From Myxococcales bacterium (GTDB taxonomy: Bacteria > Myxococcota > Myxococcia > Myxococcales > Myxococcaceae), in the NCBI GenBank assembly GCA_003153055.1, contig PMBV01000205.1, positions 1 through 19,448 of the forward strand: a DNA stretch of 19,448 nucleotides. The letters are read 5' to 3'. Below, piece by piece: positions 7,704-16,496 of the stretch. The translations under genes and the position numbers were made by a program. Position 1 is the stretch's first letter. Every line of letters begins with the position of its first letter. Under the pieces are notes generated by a model. It was not told the origin of the DNA and made no database searches. It saw only the letters and a program-made list of their open reading frames with translations.

Positions 7704-8357
7704 CTACACGCCGTGGCGCTTCCGCAGCGCGTCGGCGGTGGCGTCGTCGAGCTCCCCGGTGACCTTGAGCTTGGCGTCCTCCTGGAACGCCCGGAGCGCG
7801 AACGGCAAGCACGCCAGCGGATCCTGCCCTGGCACCGCGTACCCCAGGTTGGCCAGCCGGGCCGAGGCCCCGTCGTCGCTCTTCGACGGAGCCAGCGCCC
7901 CTACCGCCAGCTTCCACCGCGCCACGGGACGCTCCTTCGTCCCGTCGACCACCAGCCGCACCTCCTTCGCTCGGGCCGGCACCACCGCCTCGCACCACCC
8001 GTCGCCGTCCGACGAGGCCGTCACCTCCGGCCGGTCCTTCACCAGGAAATGGCAGCTCGCCCCACTGACAGCCTTCTCTTTCCCCTCGGCGTCCCAGCTC
8101 AACAGGCGCACGCGCACCCGCGCCTTGGGCAGCTTGACGACGAAGGTGTGAGACTTGCCCGTCGCCACCATCACCTTCTTCGTCTCGACGTCGGGGACGG
8201 CCACCACGTCGCCGACGGCCAGCGTGAAGGGCTCCCGCTTGGCGCGGAGCGCTTGGTTGTCCGGCGCGTTCCAGACCTTGTCCCATGCCTGCCCACCGCT
8301 CTGGGCGCCTATGCTGAGCGAGCAGTCACCCTTTTCGACGACGACGCGCTTCGGCAT
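7704..8357 (-). CDS. LysM-like / peptidoglycan-binding protein, possible type VI cargo accessory
   Basis: This 217-residue protein has no signal peptide. Residues 5-58 resemble a LysM-type module (G-DCSLSIGAQ ... W..VWNAPDNQALR ... LAVGDVVAVP). Residues 60-152 look like an Ig-like beta domain. Residues 163-216 match a PG_binding_1 domain (ARLANLGY ... ALRAFQ ... VTGELDDATADALRK). Proteins with this LysM-like plus PG_binding_1 layout are often found beside VgrG/PAAR and effector genes in type VI loci of Myxococcota and other proteobacteria. That association is from family knowledge and is not shown here. The start is well set: ATG with AGGAG (8364-8368) 6 nt upstream. It is divergent from the phospholipase unit across 49 nt, and may also lead the minus-strand run into the terpene synthase. 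Confidence 0.8.
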   Translation of the reverse strand: MPKRVVVEKGDCSLSIGAQSGGQAWDKVWNAPDNQALRAKREPFTLAVGDVVAVPDVETKKVMVATGKSHTFVVKLPKARVRVRLLSWDAEGKEKAVSGASCHFLVKDRPEVTASSDGDGWCEAVVPARAKEVRLVVDGTKERPVARWKLAVGALAPSKSDDGASARLANLGYAVPGQDPLACLPFALRAFQEDAKLKVTGELDDATADALRKRHGV

Positions 8358-8406: not shown

Positions 8407-8850
8407 ATGGAAACGGAAGACGACGGCGTACGCTTCGACGAGGCGGCGGTGGCGAGGACACCAGACCCGGCTGGTGGGCGAGCGAGCGCGACGCTGGTGC
8501 CCAAGGCGATGGCTTTCCTCGCGGTTTCGGCCCGGTTCCACGGTCGCCCGGTGGGAGGCCTGGAGGCGCGCTTCTTCCGGTCGAAGGCCGACGGCTCGAA
8601 AGGTGAACAACTCGGCGGCGTGGTGCTGACCGACACCGAGGGGGTGGCGAGGCTTCCGCGGCTGGTGACCATCGGCCACTACGTTTGCGAGCTGGAGTAC
8701 CAGAAGCCGGCGCTGGTCAGCACCGTGCTGGAGCCGGGTTCGGCGCTGGCTTTGGCGCTGCCCATCGGCCGGCACCTCGAGGAGCCGGAGGGCGGCGAGG
8801 ACACTGAGCCGCACGACACCGAGCCGGAAAACACGGAGGAGACCGACTGA
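8407..8850 (+). CDS. Small beta-domain protein with acidic tail, coupled to phospholipase D
   Basis: A 147-residue protein read from ATG 8407. The frame stays open further upstream, but that part overlaps the divergent gene and has no protein-like character. Residues about 38-120 look like a transthyretin/carboxypeptidase-regulatory-like beta sandwich (FLAVSARFHGRPVGGLEARF ... VVLTDTEGVARLP ... GHYVCELEY), a fold used in bacteria for surface and cargo binding. The last 25 residues are strongly acidic (repeated EP, DTEP, ENTEE) and probably disordered. Its TGA overlaps the phospholipase ATG by one base (TGATG), so the two are translationally coupled. A chaperone, adaptor or carrier role for the lipase is inferred from this coupling only. 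No clear Shine-Dalgarno sequence precedes 8407, so the start is moderately certain. Confidence 0.7.
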   Translation: METEDDGVRFDEAAVARTPDPAGGRASATLVPKAMAFLAVSARFHGRPVGGLEARFFRSKADGSKGEQLGGVVLTDTEGVARLPRLVTIGHYVCELEYQKPALVSTVLEPGSALALALPIGRHLEEPEGGEDTEPHDTEPENTEETD

Positions 8851-11342
8851 TGGCACCGCAGCCTGGGACGGCGCTGACGCTGGGGGAGCCCGGGTACTGG
8901 CCCGAGGCGCCGGCGGGAGTTTTCGACGTGTACCTGCAGGGGGTGCCCGAGGGGCAGCAGGTCGAGGTGACGTTCTGGGAGACCGACGGGACGGACGAGC
9001 AGCAGTGGCGGACGGAACGGAAGCTGGGGAGCATCTCGGGGAAGACGGCTGCCTCGGCGAAGCACCCGGGGCGGATGACGCTCATCCCGAACGCGCCACC
9101 ACCCGAGGTGCCGCCGGCGGAGCTGGCCAAGCCAGTGCCGTGCGTGGTGGGGTTCCGACTGCAGCCGCCGGTGGGGGCCCAGGCGGCCGAGGCGCCGCAG
9201 CTGTTCCGCTACACCCTGGCGGACGCCATGGCTGACATCGACGAGGGCGACAGCTGGGAGCTGGTGGCGAAGGTCGAGGCGCTGGAGCTGGTGTCGCAGA
9301 AGCACACGGTGGCGCGGGTGCGCCGGGGGCTGGGCACGGCCGACGCCACCTACCGGCCGCACGATGGAGATGAGCTGACGCTCTACAACGACGGCTCCAC
9401 CGATGAGCACGGCTCGGGCGGGGCCTTCTTCGACCTCTTGAAGGCCATCCAGCAGGCGCAGTCCTTCATCTTCATCGCCGACTGGTCGTTCCATCCGCTG
9501 TTTCGCCCGTCGCGGCTGGGGCCCGACGCGGTGGCGACGTGGGAGACGTCCATCGGGGCCAAGCTCATCGCCAAGGCGGGCCAGGGGCTGCTCGTGGCCA
9601 TCCACACGTGGGACCACACCAACATGGCGGCGAACGACCCGCAGAACGACAAGGGGCAAAAGGTCTTCGTCAGCATGCTGGGACGCGCGCGGCCAAAGAA
9701 CCTGTTGTGGCGGGCGAGCTCCCACGACAACACCGGGATGTCGCATCACCAGAAGTTCGTGGTGATGGACGCCCCCCCGCCGCCGGGCGCGAAGGATGGG
9801 CGGCGCACCCTGCGGGTCTTCTTCGGTGGCCTCGACCTGACGCAGGGGCGCTTCGACTTTCCGGCGCACCCCATCTTGCCACCCGACCAGGGGTGCGCCT
9901 CGGCGTGGCCGTTCGTCCAGGAGTGGCACACACCGAACTTCGTCGCGGAGCACGTGGAGACCTCGCCGGTGGGAGAAGACTCCGTGGTTCCCCAGGTCGG
10001 CACCCAGACCAACGAGTGGTACAACGCCGAGTTCGGCGGAGACACCAGCCTGCCGCGGCAGCCATGGCACGACATCTACGGGAACGCCTGGGGACCGGCG
10101 GCGTGGGACTTCGTGCGGGAATTCGTGGGGAGGTGGGGGTGCGACCCGACGTGGAACCCCACCTGGGGGGACAACAGCAAGGAGCAGATGGAGAAGGTCC
10201 ACGAGATGTTCCGCGGGCTGTTCGACTCGAAGAAGTACAAGCAGCAGTGGGAGCCGTATGACGGGCCGTTCACCAGCCAGGTGCTGCGCTCCATCATCAA
10301 GTCGCACTGGAACGATGAGCTGGAGGTGGAGAACAAGGACCGGAACGGGCGCGTCACCGGGCGGGAGAAGGAGCTGGGCTGGCACCAGGAGACGCTCCGG
10401 GCAGACTTCGAGCAGAGCATCCTCCGGGCCTACCGCCAGGCCATCGGGCAGGCGGAGAAGTTCATCTACATCGAGACGCAGTACTTCATCGGCGGGGGGA
10501 AACGTTGGGGCGTCGACAGCATCCAGAACGACCTGCCGTTGCGCATCGTCGAGCGCATCATAGAGCGGCGGAAGGTCGGGGCCCCGTTCCACGCATACGT
10601 GGTCATCCCCATGTACCCGGAGGGCGACCCGGTGAGCTGGGCCATCCAGGAGCAGCGGTGGCTCGAGTGGCGGGCGATGGAGTGGATGATCAAGCAGCTG
10701 GGGGACGACTGGTACAAGAACCTCTCGTTCTATTTCCCGGCCAACTGGACCACCGTGCCCCCCACTCAGTGGAACATGAAGGGCGGGCGTGAAGAACGAG
10801 TGCGAGCGCACCGTCGCTACATGATCTACGTACACTCCAAGCTGATGCTGGTCGACGATCGCTTCGCGATCTTCGGGAGCGCCAACCTAAACGAGCGGTC
10901 TCTGGCGGGAAATCGTGACACCGAGATCGCCTGTGCGTTCTGGCCACGGCTGGGTCGGGAGAAGGATGCCATCGCCATCCTGCGCGCGTTCCGCAAACAG
11001 CTCTGGCGGGAGCACCTCGGCAACGATCCGGCGCAGGTGGCGACCTGGGAGAGCCCGGAACAACCGAGCTGCTGGTCCGGCGTCAAGACCCTCGGGTTGG
11101 CCAACTACACGGCGCTTCGGACGACGTCCCGCCGGGGCAAGGAGGGGGCGCTGTGCTACCTACCCTTCATCCGGTCGCCCAGCGACGGGCTGATGCTCGA
11201 CGACGTCCGTGGCGTTCCGGAGGGGTCCGCTGACCTGTTGCCCGACAGCCCGGAGGGCGACCAAAAGAAAGCGAAGAAGATGGGGTGGGCCTGGTCATCG
11301 CCGGGGTCCTGGACCATTCGGAGGCTGGGCCTCGCCGAGTGA
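8850..11342 (+). CDS. Phospholipase D family protein, Tle5-like candidate antibacterial lipase
   Basis: This 830-residue enzyme has two HKD catalytic motifs: H300-x-K302-x4-D307 (SHHQKFVVMD) and H662-x-K664-x4-D669 (VHSKLMLVD). It also has the conserved GGLDL (326-330), IYIETQYFI (539-547) and GSANLNERSL...RDTEIA (676-694) seen in eukaryotic-type PLDs and in the type VI effectors PldA/PldB (Tle5). Family members hydrolyse the distal phosphodiester of phospholipids. The first 170 residues are a non-catalytic, probably beta-rich region without signal peptide, consistent with non-Sec export or a cytoplasmic enzyme. A clear GGAGGAG (8835-8841) lies 8 nt before ATG 8850. The last 48 nt overlap the 3' end of lipoprotein copy E on the other strand. 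The effector role is inferred from the PLD subtype, the coupled small gene and the neighbouring lipoprotein array. Confidence 0.9.
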   Translation: MAPQPGTALTLGEPGYWPEAPAGVFDVYLQGVPEGQQVEVTFWETDGTDEQQWRTERKLGSISGKTAASAKHPGRMTLIPNAPPPEVPPAELAKPVPCVVGFRLQPPVGAQAAEAPQLFRYTLADAMADIDEGDSWELVAKVEALELVSQKHTVARVRRGLGTADATYRPHDGDELTLYNDGSTDEHGSGGAFFDLLKAIQQAQSFIFIADWSFHPLFRPSRLGPDAVATWETSIGAKLIAKAGQGLLVAIHTWDHTNMAANDPQNDKGQKVFVSMLGRARPKNLLWRASSHDNTGMSHHQKFVVMDAPPPPGAKDGRRTLRVFFGGLDLTQGRFDFPAHPILPPDQGCASAWPFVQEWHTPNFVAEHVETSPVGEDSVVPQVGTQTNEWYNAEFGGDTSLPRQPWHDIYGNAWGPAAWDFVREFVGRWGCDPTWNPTWGDNSKEQMEKVHEMFRGLFDSKKYKQQWEPYDGPFTSQVLRSIIKSHWNDELEVENKDRNGRVTGREKELGWHQETLRADFEQSILRAYRQAIGQAEKFIYIETQYFIGGGKRWGVDSIQNDLPLRIVERIIERRKVGAPFHAYVVIPMYPEGDPVSWAIQEQRWLEWRAMEWMIKQLGDDWYKNLSFYFPANWTTVPPTQWNMKGGREERVRAHRRYMIYVHSKLMLVDDRFAIFGSANLNERSLAGNRDTEIACAFWPRLGREKDAIAILRAFRKQLWREHLGNDPAQVATWESPEQPSCWSGVKTLGLANYTALRTTSRRGKEGALCYLPFIRSPSDGLMLDDVRGVPEGSADLLPDSPEGDQKKAKKMGWAWSSPGSWTIRRLGLAE

Positions 11343-12446
11343 ACGCTCCACCTCGATTTCCACGTGGGTGAGGTTGGAGCGCCCGTGGAGCTGAGCCCAA
11401 ACTCGAGAGTCGGCGGGGTCACGGTCCGCCAAGACCGCCGAGAGTCGGACATCGGCCAGCGCCTCAGGGAGGCGCTCGCCCACGACGGCGCCCCGGACCC
11501 TGTCGTTCTGGGCTTCGAATACCACCGCGCTCGCGAGGCGCATCTTGCTCGCTCGGAGCAACTGGCTGACGGCCGTGAGCCACTGGTGCATGACCTCCGA
11601 GTCAGAAGCGCCTGTGCCGATGGGCACTTCGAGGCGCACTTGCCCCTCTGCGCGGACGTGTTTCGCGGCGTTCCTGGCACCGTTGATCGAGTCGTCGAAA
11701 ACGTCGGGAGCTTCTCGCTCGTGAGCGATCGCTCCGAGAACGAATGCAGCCGCGGCGAGCCCGTCCGGCCAGTCGTCACCATCGACCTTCCAGATGTCCT
11801 TGGGAGGCTTCGGCGGCTCGCGAACGCGGGTGAGCTCCACATGGGGCGCCAGCATGGGGAGGCCCCCTATCTCGTGGGGACCAGACACGTTCTCTAAGGC
11901 GTTGAGGAGCCGCTTGGACTCCGCCCTCGTGGGGACGGCCTCCTCGGCCGCTCGAATGAAGGTGCCGATGGCCCACGACTTGGTGAAGAGCTCTGCGTTG
12001 GGCAGCTGGAGCGCCTCCGTCTTGAGCTCGACGCCCTCGACCCACATCAGGTCCACCCTCAGGGTGGACCGCGCCTTGGGATTCCTCGGGTCGGAGAGGC
12101 GTTCCTCGACGGTCTGCCCCAGTGCCACCAGCTCCTGCACGGAAAGGCGGGACTGGAGCAGGATGGATGCGGCCACGTACCCGGGAGCGGAGCCTTCGGG
12201 GGCGTAGATTTCGATGGTCGACTCTCGGACCAGCTTAACGGCGGGCGACCACTTGAAGAGCGCCTCAGCGGTGAGGAGGAACGAGGTTCGGCTCCCGGAG
12301 TAGGAGCGAAGGCCGAAGACGACGCTCCTCGGTTTTTCGGGTTGGTCGGTGAGCATGGTCGTATCCCTACGGAGGCAGGACGGGTGAGCGCACCCGGTCG
12401 CCAGCAGAACGGCGGCGATGAGGCATATCCGACGGCGAACGGGCAT
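11295..12446 (-). CDS. Paralogous lipoprotein, copy E (intact, 383 aa)
   Basis: Start chosen at the MPVRRR methionine because every copy shares it; the frame is open far upstream, but the extra part is not a gene. The first 19 residues form a lipoprotein signal (RRR, hydrophobic core, LLATGC with C19), so the protein should be exported and lipid-anchored. Conserved blocks shared with copies A, C and D include RSYSGSR (47-53), RLSVQELVALGQ (100-111), GPHEIGG (189-195), DWPDGLAAAA (225-234), ARNAA (257-261), RGAVVGERL (318-326) and a final region ending in GPGPRR. I do not recognise the family. Its stop lies inside the phospholipase gene (48-nt convergent overlap). A periplasmic or membrane-bound immunity protein to that lipase is the favoured inference. 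No Shine-Dalgarno sequence is visible before the start (CGGTCCCTTGATG). Confidence 0.85.
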   Translation of the reverse strand: MPVRRRICLIAAVLLATGCAHPSCLRRDTTMLTDQPEKPRSVVFGLRSYSGSRTSFLLTAEALFKWSPAVKLVRESTIEIYAPEGSAPGYVAASILLQSRLSVQELVALGQTVEERLSDPRNPKARSTLRVDLMWVEGVELKTEALQLPNAELFTKSWAIGTFIRAAEEAVPTRAESKRLLNALENVSGPHEIGGLPMLAPHVELTRVREPPKPPKDIWKVDGDDWPDGLAAAAFVLGAIAHEREAPDVFDDSINGARNAAKHVRAEGQVRLEVPIGTGASDSEVMHQWLTAVSQLLRASKMRLASAVVFEAQNDRVRGAVVGERLPEALADVRLSAVLADRDPADSRVWAQLHGRSNLTHVEIEVERSLGEAQPPNGPGPRR

Positions 12447-12561
12447 CAAGGGACCGAGCGTCGCATAGCGCAGTCCATGCGCCAGGGCGAAGTGACGGGG
12501 CGCGGAGAAACGGGTGCGAGATGGACCGCTTCTTCCCCTGGTGGAGGTGGGGGTCCGAGGT
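12324..12561. repeat. Leader-plus-signal-peptide repeat, unit 1
   Basis: This 238-nt segment covers the first about 41 codons of copy E and about 115 nt upstream. It is nearly identical to 14787-15020 at copy C. The length difference comes from a 3-nt gap in the signal-peptide part and a 1-nt gap in the leader; only a few substitutions separate the two. Outside it the copies differ much more, so this is a recently duplicated or converted module. Confidence 0.85.
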
Positions 12562-12643
12562 AGTCTGGGAGTCTCGGCGACGGCCGCTCGCCCAGTCGCG
12601 GTCAGCCGGTACTTCTGAAGGCGGCTGTTCGGCTTGTCGGGTG
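12562..12643 (-). other. Unrelated coding debris in the D-E spacer
   Basis: Between the shared sequence for RLSVQGL (about 12644-12664) and the leader repeat lies an 82-nt unique stretch. On the minus strand it reads like the end of a winged-helix protein (SRLQKYRLTATGRAAVAE). No start or full domain is present. It looks like a fragment trapped between lipoprotein copies; the assignment is weak. Confidence 0.3.
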
Positions 12644-12768
12644 CGAGCCCCTGCACCGACAGCCTCATCGCGGGTCGGGCGCCCCGGAAGGTCCAGCCTC
12701 GCGGCACGAAGGGTCGACCTCCAACCCCACCCGGGTGATGTTGGAGAACCCGTGGAACTCCGCCCACC

Positions 12769-12796
12769 CTCGCGTATCCGAGGGATTCCGGTCGGC
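12769..12796. repeat. Inverted 28-nt repeat, arm inside copy D
   Basis: This part of copy D (codons for NPSDTRG on the minus strand) occurs in exact inverted orientation at 15107-15134, where it joins the truncated copy B. It was probably templated from here or from a close relative during a rearrangement. Confidence 0.85.
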
Positions 12797-13396
12797 CACC
12801 ACGGCGACGACCCGGACGTCCCCCAGCGGCCGCGGGACTCGCTCTCCCACCACCGCGCCGCGGACACGCCCCCCGTCGGCCTCGTACACGACCGCTGTCG
12901 CGATCCGCAGCTTGCTGGCCCGGAGCGCATCGCGGACACCGTCGAGCCAGCGCCGAGCAATCTCCGAGTCTGAAGTGTCCGCGGCGGCCGTCGCTTCGAG
13001 GCGGACGAGGCCGTCGGACCGGACTCGGTTCGCTGCGTTCCTCGCGTCGATGAGCCGATTTCCGCTCGACGCGGGGGCCCCATCCAGTGCCCACCGAACG
13101 ACCCCGACGGCGTAGGCCGCCGCGGCGAGGCCGTCGGGCCAGTCCCTGCCCTCGACCTTCCAGATCTCGCGCGGTGCTCGCCCGCTCGAGACCTCGAGCT
13201 CCGGTGGAAGCAGCGGAATGCCACCGATCTCGTGGGGCCCGCGAACCTTCTCCATGGCGGCGAGGATGCGTCTGGCCTCCTCGCGCGAGTTGATCGCGTT
13301 CTCCGCGGCCCGAACGAAGGTACTGAGGGCCCACGACCTGGTGAGGAGGTCGGGTTGGGCAGCTGGAGGTCCTGGGTTCTCACCTCGACCCCCTCG

Positions 13397-13529
13397 ACCC
13401 CCTCGACCCACATCAGGTCCACTCGCAGGCAGGATCTCGCCTTGGGATTCTTCGGGTCGGCCACACGCTCCTCGACGCTCTGGCCCAGGGCGACCAGCGC
13501 CTGCACCGACAGGCGCGACTGGATGAGGA
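13397..13529. repeat. 133-nt tract identical to copy C (in copy D)
   Basis: This stretch of copy D is base-for-base identical to 14494-14626 in copy C, whereas the flanking sequences of C and D are clearly diverged. It encodes the RLSVQALVALGQSVEERV to MWVEGVE region. Such a sharp island of identity points to gene conversion or recent recombination between neighbours. Confidence 0.85.
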
Positions 13530-13796
13530 CGGAGGCGGCCACGAAGCCGGGCGTCGAGCCCTCGAGGGCGTAGATCTCCGGTCAGCTTCACGCCGGGCGA
13601 CTCTGCGAAGAGGGCCTCTGCGGTCAGAAGAAAGGCAGCCCTGCTGCCGGAGTAGGAGCGCATTCCAAAGACTGCGCTCCTCGGCTTCTCCGGTTGGTCG
13701 GTGAGGATGGTCGTATCCTATGGAGGCAGGACGGGAGAGCGCACCCGGTCGCCAGAAGAGCGGCGGCGATGAGGCATGTCCGGCGTCGAACGGGCA

Positions 13797-14906
13797 TCAA
13801 GGCGGTGGTCGGCTGATCACGAGCGCGACGCGCGTGCGATTGGGGAACCCGTGGAGCCGCGCCCATTCACGGGAGTCGGCGGGATCTCGGTCGGCCGTGA
13901 CCGCTACGGGACGGGGGTACTCGAGCGGCTCGCGGAGCCGCTCCCCCACGACCGCGCCGCGGACGCGGCCGGCCTCGGCTTCGAATACCACCGCCGTCGC
14001 GATGCGCATCCTGCTGGCACGGAGTGCGTCGGCGACACCTTCCAGCCACCGGCCGGTGATCTCCGACGCCGACGCGTCCGGGCCAGCTGTCACCTCCAGG
14101 CGGACCTGTCCCTCCCAAGCGAGTGCGTTGGCCGCGTTTCTTGCGGCGTCGGCCGGGTCCCAGAAGCGATCGGGGTGCTCCTTGGCTTGCTCGATTGCAC
14201 CGACCAAGTAGGCCGCCGCCGCGAGCCCATCGGGCCAGTCGCTGCCCTCGACCGTCCAGCGGTCACTGCCTGGCCTTGGCTCGTCCGAGTGATCGACCCT
14301 CAACTCCGGGAGCAGGAGGGGGAGGCCACCGATTTCGTGCGGGCCGGGGACGTCTTGGAGGGCCTTGAGGAGCCGTTTCGACTCCGCCTTGGTGGGGATC
14401 GCCTCCTCTGCTGCGCGGATGAAGGTGCCGATCGCCCACGACCTGGTGAGAAGCTCGGGGTTGGGCAGCTCGAGGCCCTGCGCCTTCAGCTCCACCCCCT
14501 CGACCCACATCAGGTCCACTCGCAGGCAGGATCTCGCCTTGGGATTCTTCGGGTCGGCCACACGCTCCTCGACGCTCTGGCCCAGGGCGACCAGCGCCTG
14601 CACCGACAGGCGCGACTGGATGAGGATGGAGGCGGCCATGTAGCCGGGGGTCGGGCCCTCCGGAGCATAGATCTCGATGGTCGAGTCCCCGGCAAGCTTG
14701 ACACCGGGCGCTCCTTTGAAAAGGGCCTCTGCAGTGAGCAGGAAGGAGACCCGGCTGCCGGTGTAGGAGCGCATTCCAAAGACGGCGCTCCTCGGTTTTT
14801 CGGGTTGGTCGGTGAGCATGGTCGTATCCCTACGGAGGCAGGACGGGTGAGCGCACCCGGTCGCCAGCAGAACGGCGATGAGGCATGTCCGACGGCGAAC
14901 GGGCAT
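13797..14906 (-). CDS. Paralogous lipoprotein, copy C (intact, 369 aa)
   Basis: The start is ATG at 14904-14906, the shared MPVRRR methionine. The longer open frame to 15101 contains spacer debris and is not used. The signal has RRR, a short hydrophobic core and LLATGC with the lipidation cysteine at residue 18 (one residue fewer than A and E). It carries the family blocks RSYTGSR, RLSVQALVALGQSVEER, GPHEIGG, DWPDGLAAAA, RGAVVGERL and DPADSREWA. It ends about 14 residues earlier than A and E, with ISRPPP, lacking their RSLG...GPG tail. Its stop overlaps the ATG of copy D (TGATG). Its middle is identical to D and its 5' end is nearly identical to E, so it is a mosaic. Function unknown; candidate lipase immunity lipoprotein. 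Confidence 0.85.
   Translation of the reverse strand: MPVRRRTCLIAVLLATGCAHPSCLRRDTTMLTDQPEKPRSAVFGMRSYTGSRVSFLLTAEALFKGAPGVKLAGDSTIEIYAPEGPTPGYMAASILIQSRLSVQALVALGQSVEERVADPKNPKARSCLRVDLMWVEGVELKAQGLELPNPELLTRSWAIGTFIRAAEEAIPTKAESKRLLKALQDVPGPHEIGGLPLLLPELRVDHSDEPRPGSDRWTVEGSDWPDGLAAAAYLVGAIEQAKEHPDRFWDPADAARNAANALAWEGQVRLEVTAGPDASASEITGRWLEGVADALRASRMRIATAVVFEAEAGRVRGAVVGERLREPLEYPRPVAVTADRDPADSREWARLHGFPNRTRVALVISRPPP
14494..14626. repeat. 133-nt tract identical to copy D (in copy C)
   Basis: Partner of 13397-13529. Identity begins at ACCCCCTCGACCCA and ends just before a C/T difference in GAGGA(C/T)GGAGG. Confidence 0.85.
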
Positions 14907-15020
14907 CAAGGGACCGAGCGTCGCATAGCGCAGTCCATGCGCCAGGGCGAAGTGACGGGGCGCGGAGAAACGGGTCCGAGATGGACGCTTCTTCCCCTGG
15001 TAGAGGTGGGGGTCCGAGGT
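14787..15020. repeat. Leader-plus-signal-peptide repeat, unit 2
   Basis: Partner of 12324-12561. It covers the start of copy C and about 115 nt upstream, and ends exactly where the spacer debris at 15021 begins. Confidence 0.85.
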
Positions 15021-15089
15021 CACCCGGAACGTGACCACCGCCGCGCCGGAAATCTCCTCGAACTCTGGCGCCGTGATCCCTGCTCCCGC
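15021..15089 (-). other. Debris resembling the C-terminus of a COG2865/AlbA_2-type regulator
   Basis: On the minus strand this 69-nt stretch reads AGAGITAPEFEEISGAAV followed by VTFRV. This looks like the conserved last strand pair of ATP-binding 'RecG-like' transcriptional regulators (typically aGlp.PefeE...vvvtFr). It is bounded by the RLSVQAL codons at 15090-15110 and the leader repeat at 15020, with no gene body. The assignment is from memory of the family and is weak. Confidence 0.3.
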
Positions 15090-15106
15090 CAGCGCCTGCA
15101 CCGACA

Positions 15107-15134
15107 GCCGACCGGAATCCCTCGGATACGCGAG
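15107..15134. repeat. Inverted 28-nt repeat, arm at the broken end of copy B
   Basis: Exact reverse complement of 12769-12796. It starts at the point where copy B stops matching its paralogs and ends against the RLSVQAL codons, so it fills the junction of a deletion. Confidence 0.85.
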
Positions 15135-15262
15135 ACGGCGCTCCTCGGTCTCTCGGGTTGGTCGGTGAGCATGCTCGTATCCCTATGGAGGCAGGACGGG
15201 AGCGCGCACCCGGTCTCCAGGAGAACGGCGGCGATGAGGCGTGTCCGCCGGCGAATGGGCAT
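15134..15262 (-). pseudogene. Paralogous lipoprotein, copy B (5' remnant only)
   Basis: From ATG 15260-15262 the first 43 codons match the other copies: MPIRRR, a hydrophobic core, LLETGC (C19), then MLTDQPERPRSAV. Homology ends abruptly at 15134. A 28-nt inverted fragment follows (15107-15134), then the codons for RLSVQAL (residue about 100 in the intact copies) and unrelated sequence. The frame runs on to a stop at 15020 but encodes only arginine-rich nonsense. The lipobox glutamate (LLETGC, where others have LLATGC) may also impair processing. This is a deletion product of a former full copy lying 52 nt after copy A. Confidence 0.85.
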
Positions 15263-15314
15263 CAAGGGACCGAACGGAGCATAGCGGAGAACCGAAGAAC
15301 TGGGCTGGGCGTGG

Positions 15315-16466
15315 TCATCGCCCGGGTCCGCGACCATGCGGAAGGCCGGTGTCGCCGAGTGAGCGGTCCACCTGGACCACCACTCGCGTCACATTGGGGA
15401 GTCTCCGGGCGGCGGCCCACCCGCGAGTGCCGGGGGGATTGCGATCGGCCGAGACGGCCAGGAGCCTGACCGGCTCCAGCGGCTCGCGGAGGCGCTCCCC
15501 CACCACCGCGCCTCGAAGGCGATCCCCCTCAGCCTCGAAGAGTACGGCACTCGCCAGCCGCATCTTGCTGGCCCGGACCGCGTCGCTGACCGCCGCCAGC
15601 CATCGCCGCATGACCTGCGAGTCCGACGCGTCGACCTCGAAGGGAACCTCGACGCGGACCAGGCCCTCTGACCTGACCGCGTTCGCCGTATTCCTCGCCG
15701 CGTCGGCGGGGTCCCAGAAGGGCCGGGGGTCCTCGCGCTCGTGGACGATCGCTCCGAGGACGAAAGCCGCGGCGGCGAGGCCGTCAGGCCAGTCGGTCCC
15801 CTGGACCGTCCAGACGTCCGTGGCCGGCGACCCCGGCTCGCGCTCCCGCCGGAGCTCGACCTCTGGCGCCAAAAAAGGCACCTCGTCGATCTCGTGTGGC
15901 CCCTGAACACTCTGGAGCGCCTTGAGGAGCCGCCTCGACTCGGCCTTGGTGGGGACCGCCTCTTCGGCGGCGCGGGTGAAGGTGCCGACGGCCCAGGACC
16001 TGGTGAAGAGCTCGGGGTGGGGCAGCTCGATGCCGGGCGCCTTCAGCTCGACCCCCTCGACCCACAGCAACTCCAGTCGTAGGCTCGACCTCGCCTTGGG
16101 CGCCATCGGATCGGCCAGTCGCTCCTCGACGCTCTGGCCCAGGGCAACCAGCTCCTTCACCGACAGCCTCGACTGACCCAGGATGGAGGCGACGAGGTAG
16201 CCCGGGGTCGAACCTTCGGGCCCGTAGACCTCGATGGACGATTCTTTGATGAGCTTGAGACCCGGCGATGCCTTGAGCAGCGCCTCGGCGGTCAGCAGGA
16301 AGGAAGTCCGGCTGCCGGAGTAGGAGCGCATTCCAAAGACCGCGCTCCTCGGCTTTTCGGGTTGGTCGGTGAGGATGGTCGTATCTCTATGGACGCAGGA
16401 CGGGAGAGCGCACCCGGTCGCCAGCAGAACGGCGGCGATGAGGCATGTCCGCCAGCGAACGGGCAT
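15315..16466 (-). CDS. Paralogous lipoprotein, copy A (intact, 383 aa, first in array)
   Basis: The start is the shared methionine at 16464-16466 (MPVRWR); the open frame continues to 16727 without protein-like sequence. The lipoprotein signal ends in LLATGC with C19. Family blocks are RSYSGSR, RLSVKELVALGQSVEER, GPHEI, DWPDGLAAAA, ARNTA and RGAVVGERL. It has the same length as copy E, and both end in RSLG...G.GP.R, so A and E form one subfamily. As the first gene of the array it probably follows the promoter, in the 241-nt spacer shared with the divergent diguanylate cyclase. The 21 nt beyond its stop (15294-15314) still resemble the end of the phospholipase gene that overlaps copy E, hinting that A once abutted a lipase gene. 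Function unknown; candidate immunity lipoprotein. Confidence 0.85.
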   Translation of the reverse strand: MPVRWRTCLIAAVLLATGCALPSCVHRDTTILTDQPEKPRSAVFGMRSYSGSRTSFLLTAEALLKASPGLKLIKESSIEVYGPEGSTPGYLVASILGQSRLSVKELVALGQSVEERLADPMAPKARSSLRLELLWVEGVELKAPGIELPHPELFTRSWAVGTFTRAAEEAVPTKAESRRLLKALQSVQGPHEIDEVPFLAPEVELRREREPGSPATDVWTVQGTDWPDGLAAAAFVLGAIVHEREDPRPFWDPADAARNTANAVRSEGLVRVEVPFEVDASDSQVMRRWLAAVSDAVRASKMRLASAVLFEAEGDRLRGAVVGERLREPLEPVRLLAVSADRNPPGTRGWAAARRLPNVTRVVVQVDRSLGDTGLPHGRGPGR

Positions 16467-16496
16467 CAAGGGACCGAGCGTCCTATACCCCGTGTC

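What the first reader, a model, noticed from the sequence alone, without database searches (positions are those of the whole stretch)
8407..16466. Phospholipase D facing a five-copy lipoprotein array: candidate antibacterial lipase with poly-immunity
A PLD of the eukaryote-like subtype, which includes the type VI effectors PldA/PldB, is coupled to a small acidic-tailed beta-domain protein. It faces an array of five related lipoprotein genes (three intact, one pseudogene, one remnant). Known Tle5 lipases act in the target periplasm and are neutralised by envelope immunity proteins; PldB has three tandem ones. Those known immunity proteins carry Sel1-like repeats, while the proteins here show no such repeats and match no family I recognise. 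The new element would be a previously undescribed immunity lipoprotein family kept as a diversifying array. The PLD motifs and array are seen directly; the toxin-immunity link is inference.
Basis: partly seen in the sequence, partly recalled or inferred. Interest (0 to 1): 0.8.

Follow-up and report, generated by a model that had tools for sequence, protein, structure and literature searches.

The report
Dead-enzyme lipoprotein array beside a phospholipase
Next to a gene for a membrane-lipid-cutting enzyme, a bacterium (probably a myxobacterium) keeps a row of related proteins that descend from a two-part housekeeping enzyme (folate kinase fused to the RNA-ligase helper archease) but have lost key parts of both active sites and appear to be anchored in the cell envelope; whether they protect against the lipid-cutting enzyme is not known.

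Summary
In detail: an intact eukaryote-type phospholipase D (PLD, 8850-11342, +), a small beta-domain gene coupled to it, and on the opposite strand five related genes (three intact, one frameshifted, one remnant). The "unrecognised" lipoprotein family can be identified: it is a degenerate FolK (HPPK)-archease fusion. HPPK ancestry rests on profiles (17 of 17 weak PDB sequence hits are HPPK); the archease half on profiles plus a predicted fold (11 of 11 significant PDB matches). Intact FolK-archease fusions exist in other genomes, two of six just upstream of rtcB, and keep the catalytic residues examined; all six family sequences have lost key residues of both sites. dN/dS of 0.28-0.35 between the intact copies indicates selected, non-catalytic proteins. 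Their leaders are homogenised. The immunity idea is open. For it: a 75%-identical PLD and a 60%-identical lipoprotein lie on contigs of the same length; a PLD relative lies in a contractile-injection cluster and a relative of its neighbour gene beside VgrG. Against it: the genes are convergent, and none of eight other PLD loci has the family. Most likely these are envelope-anchored pseudoenzyme binding proteins; PLD immunity about 0.3.

The parts
7704..8357 (-). LysM-like / PG_binding_1 protein (P0001), divergent from the beta-PLD pair
   Evidence: PF01471 E 1.1e-5; 'LysM-like' is recalled; homologues near the PLD in L002, L003, L007, L008 and beside VgrG/PAAR in L122
8407..8850 (+). small beta-domain protein with acidic tail, stop overlaps PLD start
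   Evidence: homologues upstream of the PLD in L001, L003, L005, L007, L008 (phmmer E 1e-19 to 1e-40); no Pfam match at E<=1
8850..11342 (+). eukaryote-type phospholipase D, two intact HKD motifs
11295..12446 (-). copy E, intact pseudo-FolK-archease lipoprotein (383 aa)
11919..12326 (-). copy E: HPPK-derived domain (residues 41-176)
   Evidence: 17 of 17 PDB sequence hits at E<=1 are HPPK, best E 0.027; fusion-HPPK profile E 1.8e-21 with database size set to 1000
11343..11852 (-). copy E: archease-derived domain (about residues 199-368)
12327..12476 (-). copy E: homogenised leader block (about -30 to codon 40, lipobox LLATGC)
   Evidence: 86-100% identity with copies A, B and C, and 92/87% with D (74% in the stretch spanning the D start)
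12667..13797 (-). copy D, frameshifted pseudogene
   Evidence: body split between two frames
13797..14906 (-). copy C, intact (369 aa); stop overlaps the ATG of D (TGATG)
15143..15262 (-). copy B, remnant: leader block only, lipobox changed (LLETGC)
15315..16466 (-). copy A, intact pseudo-FolK-archease lipoprotein (383 aa)
16347..16496 (-). copy A: homogenised leader block

Best explanation
The array is a lineage-restricted family of envelope lipoproteins exapted from a bifunctional FolK(HPPK)-archease fusion enzyme. SHOWN: both domains are homologous and collinear with intact FolK-archease fusions; key residues of both active sites are gone in every member seen; the three intact copies evolve under purifying selection; the leader segment is homogenised between copies. 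INFERRED: the proteins are exported and lipid-anchored (lipobox; the leader ATG is the only start shared by the intact copies upstream of the HPPK domain) and act without catalysis, as binding proteins on the periplasmic face, kept in several diverging copies by duplication, loss and recombination at the leader. The most specific partner I can name is the neighbouring PLD, plausibly a cargo of a VgrG/contractile-type injection apparatus; binding it would protect kin from incoming enzyme. I put that last step at about 0.3 on its own.
Against: The HPPK half was predicted with poor confidence (block pLDDT 22-44), so its fold rests on sequence alone. The ribosome-binding site before the leader ATG is weak and database gene callers start downstream of it, so export is not shown. 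dN/dS in the first 40 codons is 0.78-0.93 on few changes. Some archease-profile matches are weak. HPPK D97 and H115 survive in 4 and 3 of 6 sequences. Only three contigs with the family are visible in the listings. Partner and function are untested.
Confidence: 0.7

Rival explanations
1. PLD immunity array: the lipoproteins bind and inhibit the PLD when it arrives in the periplasm of kin; several copies cover PLD variants.
For: Adjacent here; probably same contig in a second lineage; a PLD relative lies among contractile baseplate genes and a P0001 homologue beside VgrG/PAAR; a PLD-immunity protein complex is known (PldA-PA3488, passages of PMC9550806); purifying selection on three copies.
Against: Convergent, tail-overlapping genes instead of one operon. 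0 of 8 other PLD loci carry the family. 118 of the 120 listed PLD homologues are 50% identical or less, while the family is visible on only three contigs. A shared narrow clade alone could explain the linkage.
Confidence: 0.3
2. PLD-independent envelope function: the lipoproteins bind some other ligand or partner and lie beside the PLD by ancestry.
For: The family appears confined to a narrow lineage, so synteny is expected anyway; convergent orientation; PLD relatives do without it.
Against: The neighbourhood probably persists at 60-75% protein identity.
Confidence: 0.4
3. Cytoplasmic pseudo-FolK-archease proteins; the leader is not translated and the real starts are internal.
For: Weak RBS at the leader ATG; AGGAG upstream of codon 46 in A and C; database starts are internal.
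Against: No internal start ahead of the HPPK domain is shared by A, C and E; a start at codon 46 would remove the first predicted HPPK strand, 41-45 (low confidence); the lipobox LLATGC is kept in A, C, D, E and P0010 and altered in remnant B.
Confidence: 0.2
4. Decaying neutral array of a duplicated metabolic gene.
For: Two of five copies are dead; P0010 and P0011 look frameshifted.
Against: dN/dS 0.28-0.35 and codon-position bias in A, C and E; the same lost catalytic residues in all six sequences imply a long-fixed non-catalytic state.
Confidence: 0.08

Closest known systems
FolK (HPPK, PF01288) fused to archease (PF01951)
   Same: Domain order, collinear whole-length homology
   Different: Key residues of both active sites lost in 6 of 6, added leader with lipobox, C-terminal extension, multi-copy array
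PldA-PA3488 (T6SS PLD effector and its immunity protein)
   Same: Eukaryote-type PLD; candidate protective partner nearby
   Different: The PLD here is structurally nearer plant PLD-alpha; the partner candidate is convergent, and no PA3488 chain is among the PDB sequence hits of copy E at E<=1
PldB with PA5086-PA5088 (tandem Sel1-like-repeat immunity proteins)
   Same: Several tandem candidate partners beside a PLD
   Different: No Sel1 match; HPPK plus archease ancestry instead
Plant PLD-alpha (6kz8/6kz9)
   Same: Best sequence and fold match of the PLD
   Different: Bacterial, in a module with PG-binding and beta proteins

Membership tests
Tle5-type PLD effector | two intact HKD motifs in a eukaryote-type PLD fold | tested here: met
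Tle5-type PLD effector | delivery by a type VI or contractile apparatus | tested here: inconclusive
   None among the 13 window frames scanned with Pfam. One PLD relative lies in a baseplate cluster (L005); P0001 homologues lie beside VgrG in L122 and L135
Tli5-type PLD immunity proteins (PA3488; PA5086-5088) | Sel1-like repeats (PA5086-5088) | tested here: not met
   No Sel1 match at E<=1 in 3 of 3 copies; Sel1 property from passages of PMC9022076
Tli5-type PLD immunity proteins (PA3488; PA5086-5088) | same-strand operon with the PLD (expectation recalled, not from a call) | tested here: not met
   convergent, 48-nt tail overlap
Tli5-type PLD immunity proteins (PA3488; PA5086-5088) | binds and inhibits the PLD | not testable with these tools
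   no complex prediction or assay available
HPPK (FolK) | HPPK sequence homology | tested here: met
HPPK (FolK) | catalytic residues (D95, D97, R82, R92, N55, W89; E. coli numbering recalled) | tested here: not met
   D95, R82, R92, N55 and W89 lost in 6 of 6; D97 kept in 4 of 6
Archease | archease fold | tested here: met
   (predicted model of copy E)
Archease | essential metal-site residues (His9, D12, K117, D141, C-terminal carboxylate) | tested here: not met
   absent in 6 of 6; essentiality from PMC3973293 passages. P0011 is truncated at K and C-terminal D, and the HTAD region aligns across gaps
Bacterial lipoprotein | signal peptide with lipobox | tested here: inconclusive
   LLATGC leader in A, C, E, D and P0010; judged by eye from recalled rules, no predictor available; translation from that ATG not shown

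The most novel reading that the evidence does not exclude
A folate-biosynthesis/RNA-ligase-cofactor fusion enzyme has been turned into a family of lipid-anchored, doubly dead pseudoenzymes that neutralise an injected phospholipase D: an immunity array whose leader and lipobox segment is homogenised by recombination while the binding bodies diverge.
Probability: 0.27. Interest if true: 0.85.

Novelty: new variant of a known kind. Interest (0 to 1): 0.6.

Why it matters
If right, it shows a two-domain cytoplasmic metabolic enzyme recruited whole to the cell envelope as a non-catalytic protein family, a clear and testable case of pseudoenzyme exaptation. It also gives an 'orphan' lipoprotein family a definite origin. 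If the PLD link holds, it would add a new source of immunity proteins and an array architecture with a shared leader and diverging bodies. The intact FolK-archease fusion, in two of six genomes just upstream of rtcB, is itself a link between folate synthesis and RNA ligation; no paper holding both 'archease' and 'HPPK' was found in the one library searched, nor 'archease' with 'gene fusion' and 'folate'.

Tried and rejected
Rejected: chance or low complexity (whole-length homology). Sel1 or other recognised immunity domains (Pfam; NCBIfam and PADLOC on copies A and E only). Neutral decay of all copies. A known RNA element behind the conserved leaders (no Rfam match at gathering threshold; only this was tried). 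ChaN as a general PLD neighbour: the lipoprotein next to the module in L003 is ChaN; I did not test whether other PLD loci have it.

Led nowhere: the window's own genome is not held. The family was not found in genome contigs (two peptide patterns, 280 stretches, none confirmed), viral contigs (20 stretches, none confirmed), or the orders of G093 (0 of 26) and G369 (0 of 29); searches had no positive control. In the 30 loci inspected the profile hits are HPPK frames; the other matched places were not inspected. The PLD profile rang at E<=1e-60 in 3 of 377 and 3 of 183 genomes, but these three are the very genomes I started from, so no new PLD locus was found. Protein searches scored only about 8,000 candidates each, so remote members may be missed. 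The 33,813- and 109,399-bp ENA contigs could not be fetched; co-location of P0009 and P0013 rests on equal contig length and source, and no PLD could be assigned to the 109-kb contig. Of 203 PLD hits, 120 were listed. Two of eight PLD loci (L004, L006) show neither P0001 nor beta homologues among the frames picked. VgrG near P0001 homologues: 10 of 20 neighbourhoods matched the VgrG query, but only 1 (L135) its core; the other 9 matched only its C-terminal tail; no background set was run. PAAR and baseplate queries hit 0 of 20. One of the two plasmid hits (L123) had no VgrG annotated within 8 kb. The HPPK half did not fold with confidence. The tree leaves four of six family sequences unresolved; only A with P0011 is supported. 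In one search the frames printed for several hits were of the wrong strand; one search replaced them.

Full report
WHAT IS THERE. The window (64-71% GC in 1-kb steps, no tRNA) holds a deoxyhypusine-synthase-like gene, P-type ATPase, Usp, histidine kinase and terpene synthase, then the module of interest: P0001 (LysM-like by recall, PG_binding_1; 7704-8357 -), a beta-domain protein with an acidic tail (8407-8850 +), and a PLD (8850-11342 +) whose start overlaps the beta stop. On the other strand lie five related genes A-E from 16466 down to 11295. A, C and E are intact, D has at least three frame changes, and B keeps only the leader. E and the PLD overlap by 48 nt at their 3' ends. A PAS/GGDEF gene and an FGGY-kinase gene follow. 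No whole genome is held for the window. Its deoxyhypusine-synthase-like protein has its best matches, up to 75% identity, in genomes of the phylum of G003/G073; G003 was reached through a locus titled 'Myxococcales bacterium'. A myxobacterial origin is likely but not proven.

THE ACTIVE SITES ARE GONE. In a joint alignment, HPPK positions R82, W89, R92, D95 and N55 and archease positions H, D (HTAD), K and C-terminal D are kept in 6 of 6 fusions and in 0 of 6 family sequences; HPPK D97 and H115 are kept in 4 and 3 of 6. HPPK numbering is recalled. Archease residues His9, D12, K117 and D141 and the C-terminus are essential for RtcB activation in P. horikoshii (passages of PMC3973293). P0011 is truncated at the last two positions and P0010 is locally frameshifted. 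The parental type is conventional: it is the only HPPK match in 6 of 6 genomes (completeness unknown), and in G073 and G402 an rtcB match starts a few hundred bases downstream on the same strand.

SELECTION AND ARRAY DYNAMICS. dN/dS (Nei-Gojobori, my script) between A, C and E is 0.28-0.35 overall, 0.14-0.32 in the HPPK part and 0.32-0.36 in the archease part, with dS up to about 1, so the intact copies behave as functional proteins. From about 30 nt upstream of the ATG to about codon 40, copies A, B, C and E are 84-100% identical; D is 87-94% from its ATG on and 72-76% in the stretch that spans its start, since it lacks the upstream part. Further upstream most pairs fall to 25-60%, except C-E (up to 100% next to the leader) and B-D (84%, where both lie in the 3' end of the preceding copy). 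Downstream the fall is gradual among A, C, D and E (72-90%, then 59-73%) and abrupt for B. The clearest sign is at synonymous sites: C-E 0.00, A-C and A-E 0.08 in the first 40 codons against 0.34-0.61 elsewhere. D starts on the last base of the stop of C (TGATG), and C lacks the last residues of A and E. This points to recombination at the leader. Copy A pairs with P0011 from a 109-kb contig (support 98/100), so at least one duplication predates the split of those strains.

IS IT A LIPOPROTEIN? The leader ends in LLATGC in A, C, D, E and P0010 but reads LLETGC in remnant B. Against this, the ribosome-binding site is weak and gene callers start downstream. The leader ATG is the only ATG/GTG/TTG shared by A, C and E ahead of the HPPK domain (the next shared one is at column 103). 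I take export as likely (about 0.8), not shown.

THE IMMUNITY QUESTION. For: adjacency here; a 75% PLD and a 60% lipoprotein each listing a contig of 33,813 bp; maintained copies; the known precedents of PLD plus immunity protein (PldA-PA3488, passages of PMC9550806; PldB's three Sel1-like proteins, passages of PMC9022076). Against: convergent orientation; no match to A, C or E in 8 other PLD loci (phmmer with copy E on picked frames; tblastn with A, C and E on the DNA, which recovers the window array); a whole-genome search of seven genomes behind those loci gave only weak hits (best 1.7e-7; two of the three fall in HPPK-like frames); and a distribution so narrow that linkage may be ancestry. 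No further genomes with this PLD type were found in 377 and 183 genomes beyond the three I started from, so the denominator is small. I give about 0.3.

LITERATURE. Searches of the held library: 'archease' + 'HPPK' 0 papers, 'archease' + 'gene fusion' + 'folate' 0, 'pterin pyrophosphokinase' + 'pseudoenzyme' 0, 'immunity protein' + 'pseudoenzyme' + 'type VI secretion' 1, a review on ADP-ribosylation (listing only). Searches were seen as listings; three papers were read in passages only. Subscription papers and preprints are not covered.

VERDICT. Interest 0.6.

Noticed in passing
L087 (G073:C17) and L107 (G402:C1110): Intact FolK-archease fusion genes lie just upstream of rtcB on the same strand (2 of 6 fusion genomes), and the fusion is the only HPPK match in 6 of 6; two library searches found no paper on such a link.
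   Followed up: partly
L005:4264-15926: A PLD relative is encoded inside a contractile-injection/phage-tail-like baseplate cluster, with a subtilase and, two genes upstream, a protein with five matches to the beta domain.
   Followed up: partly
L122:5465-7804 and L129, L133, L134, L136-L138, L141, L143, L145: The C-terminal tail of a VgrG (residues about 716-777) has relatives near P0001-type genes in 9 of 20 neighbourhoods that lack a VgrG core match; possibly an adaptor domain. No background set was run.
   Followed up: partly
L007:6004-8562: An 852-aa protein without Pfam match at E<=0.1 sits between beta protein and PLD; unknown.
   Followed up: no
window:12447-12575 and 14907-15040 (-): Spacers upstream of E and C share a conserved stretch (87-100%), also seen translated at the start of P0010 from another contig; its role is unknown.
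   Followed up: no
window:432-1397: Deoxyhypusine-synthase-family gene (PF01916 E 5.3e-36) in a bacterium, with relatives in 83 of 377 genomes of the phylum sampled (E<=1e-30).
   Followed up: no
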